Assembly: GCA_947475525.1 (NCBI GenBank)
Contig: CANJMI010000001.1
Coordinates: 248,001 to 312,000, forward strand
Length of the DNA stretch: 64,000 bases
Reading direction: 5' to 3'
Source: Polyangiaceae bacterium
Lineage (GTDB): Bacteria > Myxococcota_A > Polyangia > Polyangiales > Polyangiaceae
The notes beneath the pieces are model-generated. The model was not told the DNA's origin, did no database searches, and was given only the letters and a program-made list of their open reading frames with translations. The first letter of the stretch is position 1, and each line of letters opens with the position of its first letter. Shown here piece after piece: positions 42,077 through 48,747 of the stretch. The position numbers were made by a program, and so were the translations under genes.

Positions 42077-44266
<2,190 letters not shown>

Positions 44267-44320
44267 AGCCCGAGCGGCGTCGGACGGCGAGTGCCGCCAT
44301 GCTCTGACGCCGCGGACGAC

Positions 44321-44953
44321 TCAGTTCAACAACTGTCGCGCTTTGGGTCGCGAGGGTGCCCGCGTGAATCGCGCGACGCCTTCTTCGAGCAACGCTTGGG
44401 CACGAGCCAGCACGAGCGACTCCTCCGCGCGGCTCACCACCTCGGCATCGCTTTCGGCTCCAGCCACGTTGCCTTCGATCGCACGCGCGCGGGCGATCGC
44501 GCCCATCAATCGCTGCATGATCGTGAGCGCGGCGCTCGTGCGACGATTCGGTCCTACGTCTCCCGAACTTCGGTCGCGGCTGCGCTCGTCTGCGTTTTCA
44601 GCCGCCTCGAGGCCGGCACGCAATTGGGCGACGAGCTCGGACAGTTCGGCGTTCGCGGTTGCGAGCGGAGCGCCTCCTTCGACACCTCGTGCGATCGTTC
44701 GCATGCGCGCCAGCACGCTCGTCATCGCCGGGGGGTTCGCGTTCGCGTGTCGCGTGTCGCCACTGCGCAGGCGAGTTTGAAGGCGAGCTTGAAGCGCGTC
44801 CGACAGCTCCATGACCGCACGGTCGTCACTCGGATCGGTGACTCGAAAGCCACTCGACAGGCGCGCAAACGACGTCCGAACGAGCCGGTCCTTCGGCTCC
44901 AGAGGGTGGCCGTCGGCGCGCCCATTCGGTGTTCGTCCTTGATTCGCTGCCAT
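44321..44953 (-). CDS. Highly diverged flagellin-like protein
   Basis: A 210-residue protein that keeps flagellin D0/D1 landmarks in order but degraded. SFARLSSGFRVTDPSDDRAV aligns with SFQRLSSGFRINSASDDAAG of the neighbouring flagellins; SVLARMRTIARGVEGGAPLA aligns with VLRMRELAVQSANGDL; and the end EESLVLARAQALLEEGVARF aligns with EETSVLARTQVLLQAGTSVL. The N-terminal NTN-type strand and most of the middle are missing, and polar linkers replace them. Upstream it lacks a good ribosome site and the leader hairpin of the other two. It could be a minor filament or hook-junction component, a regulator, or a decaying gene. Confidence 0.7.
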   Translation of the reverse strand: MAANQGRTPNGRADGHPLEPKDRLVRTSFARLSSGFRVTDPSDDRAVMELSDALQARLQTRLRSGDTRHANANPPAMTSVLARMRTIARGVEGGAPLATANAELSELVAQLRAGLEAAENADERSRDRSSGDVGPNRRTSAALTIMQRLMGAIARARAIEGNVAGAESDAEVVSRAEESLVLARAQALLEEGVARFTRAPSRPKARQLLN

Positions 44954-45178
44954 GGCTCGGTGTCGTCCCAGAGGTTTGGAGGCTTTAGAAAGAGGCTCTC
45001 CTAGCCATGTAGAACGGACAGATCCTCCAATACTTGAGGCTTTGTACGTCGAATTTTACTCGTGCCGCGCGTCGGTTTCGCTGCGCAGAAAACGACGCGA
45101 GCCGCGTGCCAGTCCGAGAGTGCCCGTGTTGGACATCGCGGAGCTCGCACACGGCTCGAGTCGAGCGCGTAACGCCGA

Positions 45179-46009
45179 TCAGCGCAGCAGGGAGAGAGCC
45201 AACTGCGGCGCCTGGTTCGCCTGGGAGAGCACCGAGGTGCCCGCTTGCAGGAGAACTTGCGATCGCGAGAGCAGTGACGTCTCTTCCGCAACGTCCACGT
45301 CGCGGATCGAGCTGTTCGCCGCTTCGAGGTTGGTGCGAATGGTCTGCGACGACGTGACCGCGATGCTGAGGCGGTTGGCCGCAGCGCCGAATCGTGCGCG
45401 GTTGGTCGACACCTGGGTGAGCGCCGAGTCGAGCGCGGTGATCGCCGCGGTGGAATTGGTCGCTGTTGAACCAGCGACCGTGATCCCGCTTAGACCCAGG
45501 TTGCTTGCCGAGATCGCGCCGAAGCTGACAGAGATCGTGTCGCTCGAGGTCGTCGAGATACCGACCTGAAAAGCGATCGTCGTCGCGACTCCACCAAGGA
45601 GGTCGATGCTGTTGAACTTCGTGGAGTTCGCCAGACGATCAATCTCCTCCTTCATCAACCCGAATTCGGTGTCGATGTAGCCGCGGTCCGTCGAGCTCAG
45701 ATCGCCGTTGGCGCTCTGAACCGCGAGTTCTCGCATGCGGATGACGATGCCGCTGACCTCGCCGAGCCCGCTCTCAGCGGTGCGCGACATGTTCAGTGCG
45801 TTCGTGGTGTTGCGTTCCGCGACAGAGAAGCTGCGGATACGCGCCTTCAACGACTCGCTTACGCCGAGTCCTGCGGCGTCGTCCGATGCGCTGTTGATGC
45901 GGTAACCGCTCGACAGACGCTGGAACGATTTTTGGAGAACCCCTTGCGAGTTCGCGAGGTTCTTCTGTGCTTCGAGGGATGCGATGTTTGTATTGATTAC
46001 TAAAGGCAT
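45179..46009 (-). CDS. Flagellin (short, D0/D1 only)
   Basis: A 276-residue flagellin, the filament subunit exported by the flagellar type III system. It starts MPLVINTNIASLEAQKNL and has SFQRLSSGYRINSASDDAAG, VIRMRELAVQSANGDLSSTD and the C-terminal TSVLSQANQAPQLALSLLR helix. There is no room for the variable D2/D3 domains. The start at ATG 46009 has AAGGAG six bases upstream; a TTG six bases earlier is not used. No terminator was seen after it, so the diverged flagellin-like gene 225 bp downstream might be read through. Confidence 0.95.
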   Translation of the reverse strand: MPLVINTNIASLEAQKNLANSQGVLQKSFQRLSSGYRINSASDDAAGLGVSESLKARIRSFSVAERNTTNALNMSRTAESGLGEVSGIVIRMRELAVQSANGDLSSTDRGYIDTEFGLMKEEIDRLANSTKFNSIDLLGGVATTIAFQVGISTTSSDTISVSFGAISASNLGLSGITVAGSTATNSTAAITALDSALTQVSTNRARFGAAANRLSIAVTSSQTIRTNLEAANSSIRDVDVAEETSLLSRSQVLLQAGTSVLSQANQAPQLALSLLR

Positions 46010-46041
46010 GTCCAACTCCTTCTTAGAGCTGCCGTGCTTCC

Positions 46042-46060
46042 CACCGTCATCATGACGGTG
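46042..46060 (-). promoter_or_regulatory. Leader hairpin of flagellin gene 45179-46009
   Basis: CACCGTCATGATGACGGTG on the minus strand is a perfect 9+1+9 palindrome; as RNA it forms a 7-bp stem with an AUGAU loop, 33 bases before the start codon. The other flagellin gene has the same loop with a stem differing by two compensated base pairs. It may be an operator or an RNA control element. Confidence 0.6.
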
Positions 46061-46080
46061 TTTGGGATGGCTCGGAGGGG

Positions 46081-46094
46081 CCCGCCAGGATCCC
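46081..46094 (-). promoter_or_regulatory. Upstream motif of flagellin gene, copy 3
   Basis: GGGATCCTGGCGGG on the minus strand, 21 bases upstream of the leader hairpin. It matches GGGACCTTGGCGGG, found twice at the same relative position before the other flagellin gene. Likely a promoter or activator-binding element. Confidence 0.5.
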
Positions 46095-46180
46095 TCCTAG
46101 TCAATGCGAACGGACCATCCCTAAAAAACTTTAGCCGTTCCCTCTTTGGCACCCGAATTCACTGGGAATTATCGAACAAA

Positions 46181-46220
46181 ATAAAAAAAGCCCGCACAGC
46201 CGAGTAGGGCTGCGCGGGCT
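46181..46220 (-). terminator. Rho-independent terminator after flagellin gene 46241-47071
   Basis: A 13-bp GC-rich stem (46189-46201 with 46208-46220, one G-U pair on the RNA) with a short loop, followed on the minus strand by seven T and then ATTTTG. It lies 20 bp after the stop codon, so the next flagellin gene needs its own promoter. Confidence 0.92.
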
Positions 46221-46240
46221 CATTGGGTCGCTTCTGTCGA

Positions 46241-47071
46241 TCAGCGGAGAAGGCTGAGCGCCAGCTGCGGTGCCTGGTTCGCCTGGGACAACACCGAGGT
46301 GCCGGCCTGGAGGAGAACCTGGGTTCGCGCGAGGACCGACGTTTCCTCAGCCACGTCGACATCGCGGATTGCGCTGTTCGCCGCTTCGAGGTTCGTTCGA
46401 ATCGTCTGCGAGTTCGTGACCGCGATGCCGAGCCGGTTCTGCGCGGCACCGAATCGTGCACGCGTAGTCGATACCGAGGTGAGTGCCGTGTCCACGGCGT
46501 TGATCGCCGCCGTAGCGGCGGTCGCGCCGGAGCCCCCAACGCTGATGCCGCTGAGTCCGAGGGACGAGACGGATACGCCACCGAAAGAGACCGAGATCGT
46601 GTCGTTCGAGGTCGTGCCGATGCCGACCTGGAACGCGACGGCCGCGGCGCTGCCCGCGAGCAGGTCGACGCCGTTGAATTGGGTCGAGCCCGACACGCGG
46701 TCGATCTCGTCCTTCATCAGCTGGAACTCGGTATCGATGTAGCTGCGATCTGTAGAGGTCAGATCGCCGTTGGCACTCTGAACGGCGAGCTCACGCATAC
46801 GCAGAACGATGCCGCTGACCTCGCTGAGGCCACCTTCTGCGGTACGCGTCATGCTGATGGCGTTCGCAGTGTTGCGCTCCGCAACCGTGAAGCTGCGGAT
46901 ACGCGACTTCAACGATTCGCTGACCCCGAGGCCTGCCGCGTCGTCCGAAGCGCTGTTGATACGGAAGCCGCTCGACAAGCGCTGGAACGATTGGCCGAGT
47001 GCTGATTGCGCTCGGTTCAGGTTCTTTTGCGCGCTGAGAGAAGCAACGTTGGTATTGATTACAAGAGGCAT
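46241..47071 (-). CDS. Flagellin (short, D0/D1 only), paralogue of 45179-46009
   Basis: A 276-residue flagellin of exactly the same length as its neighbour and very similar along the whole chain: MPLVINTNVASLSAQKNL, SFQRLSSGFRINSASDDAAG, VLRMRELAVQSANGDLTSTD and the same TSVLSQANQAPQLALSLLR end. Differences concentrate in the middle. AAGGAG lies nine bases before the ATG. A structured leader and two 19-bp direct repeats lie upstream and a strong terminator follows. No other flagellar, FliW or FliS gene is in the window. Confidence 0.95.
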   Translation of the reverse strand: MPLVINTNVASLSAQKNLNRAQSALGQSFQRLSSGFRINSASDDAAGLGVSESLKSRIRSFTVAERNTANAISMTRTAEGGLSEVSGIVLRMRELAVQSANGDLTSTDRSYIDTEFQLMKDEIDRVSGSTQFNGVDLLAGSAAAVAFQVGIGTTSNDTISVSFGGVSVSSLGLSGISVGGSGATAATAAINAVDTALTSVSTTRARFGAAQNRLGIAVTNSQTIRTNLEAANSAIRDVDVAEETSVLARTQVLLQAGTSVLSQANQAPQLALSLLR

Positions 47072-47119
47072 GACACAAAACTCCTTCGTAGAGTTAACTC
47101 ACCGAGGTGAGTGCCTTCG

Positions 47120-47138
47120 CGTCGTCATCATGACGACG
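47120..47138 (-). promoter_or_regulatory. Leader hairpin of flagellin gene 46241-47071
   Basis: CGTCGTCATGATGACGACG on the minus strand is a perfect 9+1+9 palindrome (7-bp stem, AUGAU loop as RNA), 49 bases before the start codon. Compared with the hairpin at 46042-46060, stem pairs 2 and 3 change from A-U and C-G to G-C and U-A, keeping pairing. Confidence 0.6.
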
Positions 47139-47156
47139 GTGTGGGCGTACGAGTCA

Positions 47157-47206
47157 GGTTCCCGCCAAGGTCCCGTGACTCTCTTGCGGTTCCCGCCAAG
47201 GTCCCG
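47157..47206 (-). repeat. Two 19-bp direct repeats upstream of flagellin gene
   Basis: The plus-strand sequence GGTTCCCGCCAAGGTCCCG occurs at 47157-47175 and 47188-47206, a 31-bp period (about three helical turns). The near copy is 19 bases upstream of the leader hairpin, as is the single related motif before the other flagellin gene. Probably binding sites for a flagellin regulator or sigma factor. Confidence 0.7.
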
Positions 47207-47330
47207 CAACCCATTCAAACGGTCGCCCGGCGCGCTCCTTGAGGACCGGGGGTCGATTTATCTCGCTCGGTCTTGCGAGTGGTGTTGATTCACCCTGCCT
47301 CGATGAAGGGGGCGCACTACGCTCTCGCGC

Positions 47331-48149
47331 GTGGGCATGGACGACCGTCGAGACATCTTCCTGCGCGGCTTGGACGCTTACCGAAAGGGTGAGCATCACG
47401 AGGCGCACGAGCATTGGGAGGAGATTTGGCAGGACGAACCCGATGAGTCGCGAAGTCGCCTTCTTCAGGCGCTGATTCAAGTCGCGAGCGCGGCTCACAA
47501 GGCGACGCATGATGTGGCTCCGCTCGGTGCGGTGAGACTTCTCGAACAGGCAGAGAGGCGCCTGCGTGCGTTGCCCGAGCGATTCATGGCTGTCGACGTG
47601 GCAGCGCTATGCGAACGCCTTGGGCCTTACGCTCACGCAATAACGACGGCGCATGCGGCGCTGGGACACGTGCGTCTCGAGGCCTCGCTCGCGCCTGAGA
47701 TCCCGATCGCTGGCGAGGTGGGTCCGTGGGGAGCGGTCGAGGCGGCGCCGCTCGTCCCGGAGCTTGCGCGGGCGGCCTGGTTCGAGCAAGGGCTGTCCGC
47801 TTACGGGCGCGGCGCGTTTTTCGATGCGCATGAGTTCTGGGAACAGCTGTGGCGTGACGAGCGGGGGGAGGATTACAAGTGCCTGTTGCAGGGCCTGATT
47901 CAGGTGGCTGCGGCGATGCACAAAGTGCAGGAGCAGCACAAGCCAGGGCCCTCGGCGAGCTTGCTCTCCCGTGCGCTGTTGCGGCTCAGCGGCTTGCCGA
48001 AGGACTTCGGTGGGCTGCAGGTGGATCGCGTGGTCCGCGAAATTCTCGACGCGCAGCGGGCCCTCGCGGAGCTTGTCGAATCGCCAAAACATTTGCCGAT
48101 GCTCGCGCCGGAGCAGGTGCCCACGATCGCTCGCGTGCTGCGGGGCTGA
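47331..48149 (+). CDS. Tandem DUF309 protein
   Basis: A 272-residue protein made of two DUF309-type units. The first has FLRGLDAYRKGEHHEAHEHW with LLQALIQVASAAHKATH, the second WFEQGLSAYGRGAFFDAHEF with LLQGLIQVAAAMHKVQEQ. Both keep the HEAHExWE-type His/Glu helix. DUF309 proteins are usually single-unit, around 100-170 residues, and of unknown function. The start is a GTG at 47331 or an ATG at 47337. The gene is divergent from the flagellin gene, whose regulatory region lies between them. Confidence 0.8.
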   Translation: MGMDDRRDIFLRGLDAYRKGEHHEAHEHWEEIWQDEPDESRSRLLQALIQVASAAHKATHDVAPLGAVRLLEQAERRLRALPERFMAVDVAALCERLGPYAHAITTAHAALGHVRLEASLAPEIPIAGEVGPWGAVEAAPLVPELARAAWFEQGLSAYGRGAFFDAHEFWEQLWRDERGEDYKCLLQGLIQVAAAMHKVQEQHKPGPSASLLSRALLRLSGLPKDFGGLQVDRVVREILDAQRALAELVESPKHLPMLAPEQVPTIARVLRG

Positions 48150-48150
48150 C

Positions 48151-48747
48151 TCAGTTACCGCCCGTGGCTGCGCGTGCGAGCACCGCGTCAAGCCGCGCGA
48201 GGAATGCGTCCGGTGTGAGGTAGTGCTCGATACGCTCGAGCTGGCGACCGTGGTCGTCGACGAACACCATCGTGGGCAAGCCGCGAACGCGGTAACGGGC
48301 TTGCTCGTGGCGGTTGGCTCGCGTCTCCTCGGTGACGTCGATCCGGAGCGCGACGAAGTGCGTGCTGAGGCGTTGCCGCACCACGGGATCCGACAACGTA
48401 TCGCTCTCGAGTAGGTGGCAAGGAAGGCACCAGTCCGCGGCAAAGTGGACGAGCATCGGGCGGTGAGTCCGGCGCGATTCGGCTGCCGCTTGCTCCACAT
48501 CGGTGAGCCACGGCGGGTCGACGTGTAGCGCGACGGCGTCTGGAAGGTCGCCCCGTTGCGCGGGGACGGAAGGCGCGCTCGGTGATTCGCGCGACGGCGT
48601 CGAGGAAGCTGCGACGCTGCCATCTTCGGTGCTGCGATCGGCGGCGCGGCCACCCGCAAGTTCCGGCATGCGCCAAGCCATCGACGGCTGCTTTGTGCAT
48701 GCGCCGAGCAGCACGGCCGACAAGGCAAGTGCTCGGCGCGCGGTCAC
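48151..48747 (-). CDS. Thioredoxin-like lipoprotein (DsbD C-terminal-domain type)
   Basis: A 198-residue protein. A GTG start at 48747 overlaps the upstream gene by 4 nt and gives a signal peptide with lipobox SAVLLGAC (Cys17). After a Ser/Pro-rich linker comes a thioredoxin fold with the active site HFAADWCLPCHLLE, a cis-proline segment RGLPTMVFVDD, and LSDPVVRQRL, all typical of periplasmic DsbD-gamma-like reductants. It probably reduces disulfides of envelope proteins; its Cys-rich neighbour is an obvious candidate substrate, though that is inference. Confidence 0.83.
   Translation of the reverse strand: MTARRALALSAVLLGACTKQPSMAWRMPELAGGRAADRSTEDGSVAASSTPSRESPSAPSVPAQRGDLPDAVALHVDPPWLTDVEQAAAESRRTHRPMLVHFAADWCLPCHLLESDTLSDPVVRQRLSTHFVALRIDVTEETRANRHEQARYRVRGLPTMVFVDDHGRQLERIEHYLTPDAFLARLDAVLARAATGGN

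What the first reader, a model, noticed from the sequence alone, without database searches (positions are those of the whole stretch)
44321..44953. A third, heavily degraded flagellin-like protein beside two intact flagellins
The 210-residue product keeps SFARLSSGFRVTDPSDD near the N-terminus, an RMR-containing helix, and a C-terminal helix aligning with EETSVLARTQVLLQAG, all in flagellin order. It has lost the N-terminal NTN strand and most of the D1 middle, and has acidic/basic linkers instead. Flagellin folds depend on both ends, so either this is a specialised short paralogue (junction protein, filament tip, secreted decoy or regulator) or a decaying gene. The frame is open throughout, which argues for some selection.
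Basis: partly seen in the sequence, partly recalled or inferred. Interest (0 to 1): 0.72.

Follow-up and report, generated by a model that had tools for sequence, protein, structure and literature searches.

The report
Conserved short flagellin lacking assembly ends
Next to the genes for the bacterial flagellum's main protein lies a shortened, reshaped copy that cannot be an ordinary filament subunit, yet it is kept in all five sequenced members of its genus, so it is a working specialised protein of unknown exact job rather than a dying gene.

Summary
The 210-aa ORF (44321-44953, -) is a real, flagellin-derived gene. All five genomes of the genus carry an orthologue with an uninterrupted frame (38-57% identity), always the last gene of a flagellin array. 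No comparable copy turned up among 184 genomes of the order. A profile of the five matches the genus flagellins (hhalign E 4e-17) and, in the PDB, only flagellins (best 2.7e-11). Codon models reject neutrality (dN/dS about 0.1-0.2, 2dlnL 50-90), so decay is refuted. In three of five genomes the gene has its own copy of the promoter-like motif (TMAAG-N15-CCGTTC) found before the flagellins. The retained pattern is specific: the N-terminal D0 helix is replaced by a proline/charge-rich segment, mostly of the same length; RLSSGFR, inside the known flagellar export-signal region, is nearly invariant; the distal half of D1 is deleted; the C-terminal D1 helix is kept; the C-terminal D0 tail, which FliS and filament packing need, is lost. 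Best explanation: a late-class, filament-incompetent flagellin paralogue, probably exported as a non-structural protein (works like Campylobacter FlaC, different anatomy). Export is inferred, not shown. Rivals: cytoplasmic FliW/FliS/FlhA regulator, or minor structural subunit. AlphaFold was uninformative.

The parts
44321..44953 (-). short flagellin-derived gene, 210 aa
   Evidence: orthologues in 5/5 genomes of the genus, dN/dS well below 1, profile match to flagellins
44873..44953 (-). residues 1-27: N-terminal D0 helix replaced by a Pro/charge-rich segment of the same length
   Evidence: flagellin-invariant cells kept 7/40, four of them the start Met; AlphaFold pLDDT <50 for residues 1-18
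44843..44872 (-). residues 28-37, SFARLSSGFR: near-invariant segment inside the region that corresponds to the FliC 26-47 export signal
   Evidence: flagellin-invariant cells kept 32/35; export-signal literature PMC6337784
44699..44707 (-). residues 83-85, RMR of the second N-terminal D1 helix
   Evidence: R83 and R85 invariant in shorts and flagellins
44369..44515 (-). residues 147-195: C-terminal D1 helix plus first half of C-terminal D0, strongest constraint
   Evidence: dN/dS 0.06-0.11 for residues 135-195; invariant RL, GN, AEE, R184, ALLE
45013..45037 (-). TCAAG-N15-CCGTT promoter-like motif of the short gene (59 bases before the start)
45179..46009 (-). flagellin B, 276 aa, directly upstream
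   Evidence: Pfam Flagellin_N 5e-37, Flagellin_C 2.5e-21
46109..46133 (-). same promoter-like motif before flagellin B
46241..47071 (-). flagellin A, 276 aa
   Evidence: Pfam Flagellin_N 1e-39, Flagellin_C 1.7e-22
47218..47242 (-). same promoter-like motif before flagellin A
42077..44266 (-). prolyl oligopeptidase gene 54 bases downstream; neighbour only, not kept next to the short gene in G002
   Evidence: Pfam Peptidase_S9; synteny

Best explanation
Shown: a genus-specific paralogue of flagellin, kept by purifying selection at the end of the flagellin array, with a flagellin-type promoter motif in three of five genomes. It has lost both parts of the D0 domain that stack in the filament core, and the distal half of D1. 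Kept are the RLSSGFR segment within the region used as the flagellar type III export signal, and a helical core made of the proximal D1 helices. Inferred: it is made together with the late flagellar genes, passes through the flagellar export channel, cannot join the filament, and ends up as a soluble helical protein outside the cell. That would be a non-structural flagellin, working like Campylobacter FlaC. What it does outside (for example binding to prey, particles, phage or a partner at the filament tip) is not determined.
For: Orthologues in 5/5 genomes, no stops, one clade in the tree (long branches). Purifying selection: omega 0.10, 0.12 and 0.21 with 2dlnL 88, 90 and 56 against omega=1, strongest at residues 25-64 and 135-195. 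Same place, after the last flagellin, in all five. Promoter-like motif: 4 hits in the window, 3 of them before the flagellins and the short gene, 0 of 100 shuffles reach 4; of 62 exact hits (TMAAG-N15-CCGTTC) in five genomes, 15 lie 37-245 bases before a flagellin or short gene, three of them short genes. Segmental retention: RLSSGFR 32/35, D0 N-helix 7/40, D0 C-tail 11/50. FliC 1-47 and, in a truncated form, 26-47 direct export (PMC6337784). The termini are needed for polymerisation (PMC8306008). The genomes encode FlgK, FlgL, FliS, FliW and CsrA (FlgK and FlgL read by eye in G000 only).
Against: No secretion data. The second half of the 26-47 region is not conserved among the short proteins (12/50 cells). 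The C-terminal tail needed for binding the export chaperone FliS is mostly lost (PMC5466977), so export might be poor. No exact promoter motif before the G002 and G004 copies. dS is near or beyond saturation in the comparisons, so omega values are rough.
Confidence: 0.42

Rival explanations
1. Cytoplasmic regulator: the protein stays inside and binds FliW, FliS or the export gate FlhA through the retained D1 helices, tuning flagellin translation (FliW-CsrA) or export.
For: FliW, CsrA and FliS are all present. In Bacillus, FliW contacts flagellin residues 50-72 and the C-terminal D1 helix 240-260, and FlhA contacts D1 (PMC6070490); the C-terminal D1 helix is the most constrained part of the short protein. 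It is co-regulated with flagellins.
Against: In Campylobacter FliW needs the N-terminal D0 part and FliS needs an intact C-terminus (PMC5466977), both lost here. Part of the 52-75 segment is deleted in G000, G001 and G003.
Confidence: 0.25
2. Minor structural part: it docks by its D1 helices at the hook-filament junction, the filament tip or the surface of the filament.
For: D1-type helices and RLSSG retained, flagellin-type promoter motif.
Against: D0, which forms the inner tube and is critical for polymerisation, is missing at both ends. FlgK and FlgL are encoded separately, so it is not a replacement for the junction proteins.
Confidence: 0.15
3. Decaying pseudogene with a frame open by chance.
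For: Long open frames are common on both strands of this GC-rich DNA; identity to flagellin is low.
Against: Open in 5/5 genomes, omega far below 1 with 2dlnL 50-90, specific residues invariant, promoter motif kept in three genomes.
Confidence: 0.03
4. It acts on flagellin outside the cell or during assembly, for example as a terminator or length-control factor that caps growth because it lacks the outer D1 and D0.
For: A subunit-like protein without D0 sent down the same channel could end polymerisation; made with flagellin.
Against: The FliD cap and HAP system already covers tip functions; no direct evidence.
Confidence: 0.1

Closest known systems
Campylobacter FlaC (non-structural, secreted flagellin-like protein; PMC4863622, PMC5466977)
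   Same: Short flagellin paralogue, separate from the structural flagellins, conserved in its lineage; FlaC is not needed for motility and is secreted through the flagellum.
   Different: FlaC keeps both D0 and D1 and lacks mainly the outer domains. Here D0 is lost at both ends and the distal D1 is lost too. Secretion is shown for FlaC, only inferred here.
Structural flagellin (FliC/Hag; PF00669, PF00700)
   Same: Homologous, same order of RLSSG, RMR and the C-terminal D1 helix, adjacent genes, shared promoter-like motif.
   Different: Below Pfam cut-offs, no N-terminal INTN..SL.AQ helix, no ANQ.P..AL.LL tail, no distal D1.
FlgL (hook-filament junction protein 3)
   Same: Distant flagellin relative with a flagellin-like N-terminus.
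   Different: The genome has a separate FlgL between flgK and csrA-fliW; no FlgL model was among the short protein's NCBIfam hits.

Membership tests
Flagellin (structural) | common descent with flagellins | tested here: met
   profile-profile E 3.9e-17 over 194 columns; PDB profile search hits only flagellins
Flagellin (structural) | Pfam Flagellin_N and Flagellin_C above curated cut-offs | tested here: not met
   Flagellin_N 16.8 bits against 26.6, no Flagellin_C in the window copy; orthologues also below cut-off
Flagellin (structural) | both D0 segments needed for filament packing | tested here: not met
   conserved cells kept 7/40 (N) and 11/50 (C tail)
Flagellin (structural) | D0/D1 fold | tested here: inconclusive
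   AlphaFold helical but mean pLDDT 51 and 57, no PDB fold match
FlaC-type secreted flagellin | conserved, distinct from filament flagellins, co-occurring with them | tested here: met
   5/5 genomes, separate clade
FlaC-type secreted flagellin | D0-D1 domains retained, only outer domains missing | tested here: not met
   D0 lost, distal D1 deleted
FlaC-type secreted flagellin | secreted through the flagellum, not needed for motility | not testable with these tools
   needs experiment
FlgL | FlgL model match and flgK-flgL gene order | tested here: not met
   no FlgL model among its hits; the FlgL-like gene follows the FlgK-like gene elsewhere

The most novel reading that the evidence does not exclude
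A lineage-specific class of flagellin-derived proteins in which the filament-forming D0 domain has been discarded, while the export-signal segment and a D1 helical core have been kept for a new, filament-independent role (secreted effector or assembly regulator), made from its own late-flagellar promoter.
Probability: 0.4. Interest if true: 0.65.

Novelty: new variant of a known kind. Interest (0 to 1): 0.5.

Why it matters
Few non-structural flagellins are known, and the best studied, FlaC, still has its polymerisation domains. A naturally D0-less flagellin kept by selection separates what is needed for export from what is needed for assembly. It gives a simple system for asking whether RLSSG with a disordered N-terminus is enough for export, and what free-living bacteria use secreted flagellin derivatives for.

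Tried and rejected
AlphaFold with 5 and with 27 sequences gave mean pLDDT 51 and 57, helical only; Foldseek against PDB gave no match under E 3.8. Both are uninformative and not counted as evidence either way. A frameshift hiding the lost N-terminal D0 in another frame was looked for by tblastn of flagellins against the gene and its leader: only chance-level hits in other frames. A functional link to the downstream prolyl oligopeptidase was considered and dropped: it is adjacent in G000, G001 and G003, but in G002 a different (aconitase-like, by eye) gene follows. A sigma-54 promoter scan gave one near match in G000 that is not shared with the orthologues. Rfam found no known RNA in 43000-48500. 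Literature search found no description of such a protein in the open-access library.

Full report
What was checked. The ORF at 44321-44953 on the minus strand is present as described. It reads MAANQGRTPN...RTSFARLSSGFRVTDPSDD...ARMRTIA...EESLVLARAQALLEEGVARF...RQLLN. Upstream on the same strand are two intact flagellins (45179-46009 and 46241-47071; Pfam E 1e-39 to 2e-21), 225 bases away; downstream, after 54 bases, is a prolyl oligopeptidase gene.

Is the resemblance real? The window copy alone scores below the Pfam cut-off (Flagellin_N 16.8 bits, E 0.0075). Searching the five genomes of the genus found an orthologue in every one, without stops. The G004 and G002 copies hit the flagellins at 1e-16 and 1e-12 and begin with PLFTK (the G004 copy MPLFTK), close to the flagellins' MPLVVNTN. 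A profile of the five matched 54 distinct PDB sequences up to E=1; all are flagellins, the best at 2.7e-11. Profile against profile with 22 flagellins gave E 3.9e-17 over 194 columns from N- to C-terminus. Flagellin ancestry is established.

Is it decaying? No. Pairwise codon models give omega 0.10 (G000-G001), 0.12 (G000-G003) and 0.21 (G002-G004), each rejecting omega=1 (2dlnL 88, 90, 56). Flagellins themselves give 0.04-0.07 between genomes, so the short gene evolves faster but is clearly constrained. Split by region, residues 25-64 (0.08-0.17) and 135-195 (0.06-0.11) are the most constrained; the first 24 residues and, in the G002-G004 pair, the tail are the least. Caveat: synonymous sites are near or beyond saturation.

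Where is it found? In the genus 5 of 5. In 108 genomes of the family and 184 of the order the five-sequence profile finds these five at E<1e-86; the next hits are 3.5e-16 and weaker and, among those listed, are nearly all flagellin-sized frames of 250 aa or more (the exceptions are contig-end fragments in G001 and one frame with an internal stop in G086). The scan of genome contigs found only the G003 record, a lake metagenome-assembled genome labelled Deltaproteobacteria. The five form one clade in the tree, on long branches. In each genome the gene is the last of a flagellin array; the prolyl oligopeptidase follows in three, a different gene in G002.

How is it expressed? Leaders of the flagellins share a promoter-like motif TMAAG-N15-CCGTTC, resembling a flagellar sigma-28 site in form (my reading; the sigma factor was not tested). 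In the window the shorter form (ending CCGTT) occurs four times, three before flagellin A, flagellin B and the short gene; 0 of 100 shuffles reach four. Across five genomes 62 exact sites occur (44 for the reversed control pattern), and 15 lie 37-245 bases before a flagellin or short gene, including the short genes of G000, G001 and G003. G002 and G004 lack an exact site before the short gene; they may be read through from the flagellin.

What is kept and what is lost? Counting columns that are at least 90% conserved in 22 flagellins: N-terminal D0 helix 7 of 40 cells kept (four are the start Met); residues 28-37 (S..RLSSGFR) 32 of 35; residues 38-51 12 of 50; second D1 helix start (RMRELA) 30 of 95; distal D1 and outer part 14 of 145, mostly deleted; C-terminal D1 36 of 65; IRDVDVAEE bend 11 of 35; first half of C-terminal D0 21 of 40; D0 tail 11 of 50. 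In four of five copies the segment before RLSSG has the flagellin length, so the N-terminal D0 was replaced, not cut.

What does this imply? Literature: the flagellin termini are disordered in the monomer and critical for polymerisation (PMC8306008). FliC residues 1-47, or a truncated 26-47 construct, direct export (PMC6337784). FliS needs the flagellin C-terminus and FliW the N-terminus in Campylobacter (PMC5466977). In Bacillus, FliW also contacts residues 50-72 and 240-260, and FlhA contacts D1 (PMC6070490). Put on the map above: filament packing is predicted lost; the first half of the export-signal region is the best kept part; FliS and FliW contacts are at most partial. All five genomes encode FliS, FliW and CsrA, and G000 has recognisable FlgK and FlgL genes (by eye), so the partners exist and the short protein is not a substitute for FlgL.

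Verdict on function. I favour an exported, filament-incompetent protein that works like Campylobacter FlaC (about 0.42), over a cytoplasmic regulator (0.25), minor structural part (0.15), growth terminator (0.1) and pseudogene (0.03). Existence, ancestry, selection and position are shown; the shared promoter is statistical; export and any role outside are inference. It is not filed as a FlaC member because FlaC keeps D0 and D1, a feature tested and not met here.

Limits. Structure prediction failed to reach useful confidence and the fold search is therefore uninformative. The open-access library holds no account of this protein that I could find, which is not proof that none exists.

Noticed in passing
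window 46010-46070 and 47072-47140 (-), and leaders of flagellins in L031-L034: Flagellin leaders in the genus share a palindrome (CGTCATGATGACG) and, just before the start codon, an inverted repeat AACTC-N-AAGAA-GGAGTT that pairs the ribosome-binding site; the flagellin A leader folds better than shuffles (z -2.65). It could be a CsrA-type translational switch; the short gene's leader in the window lacks it. No Rfam family matches.
   Followed up: partly
L034 6853-7215 (-) = G000:C8:134855-135214: A 120-aa protein sits directly behind the same promoter-like motif, with orthologues in all five genomes (two of them with a stop in the matched frame); the motif also precedes the G002 and G004 copies. 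Its C-terminus (..TADEM) looks by eye like that of rod/hook proteins, but Pfam and NCBIfam give nothing.
   Followed up: partly
L121 653-3871 = G000:C2 near 273152-276370: Gene order flgK-flgL-csrA-fliW (by eye and by the Flagellin_N, CsrA and FliW matches); the CsrA is 90 aa, with an extended C-terminal tail.
   Followed up: no
G085 (same family): contigs C4, C20, C21, C35, C111, C181: A genome with an unusually large number of flagellin matches (17 at the profile threshold).
   Followed up: no
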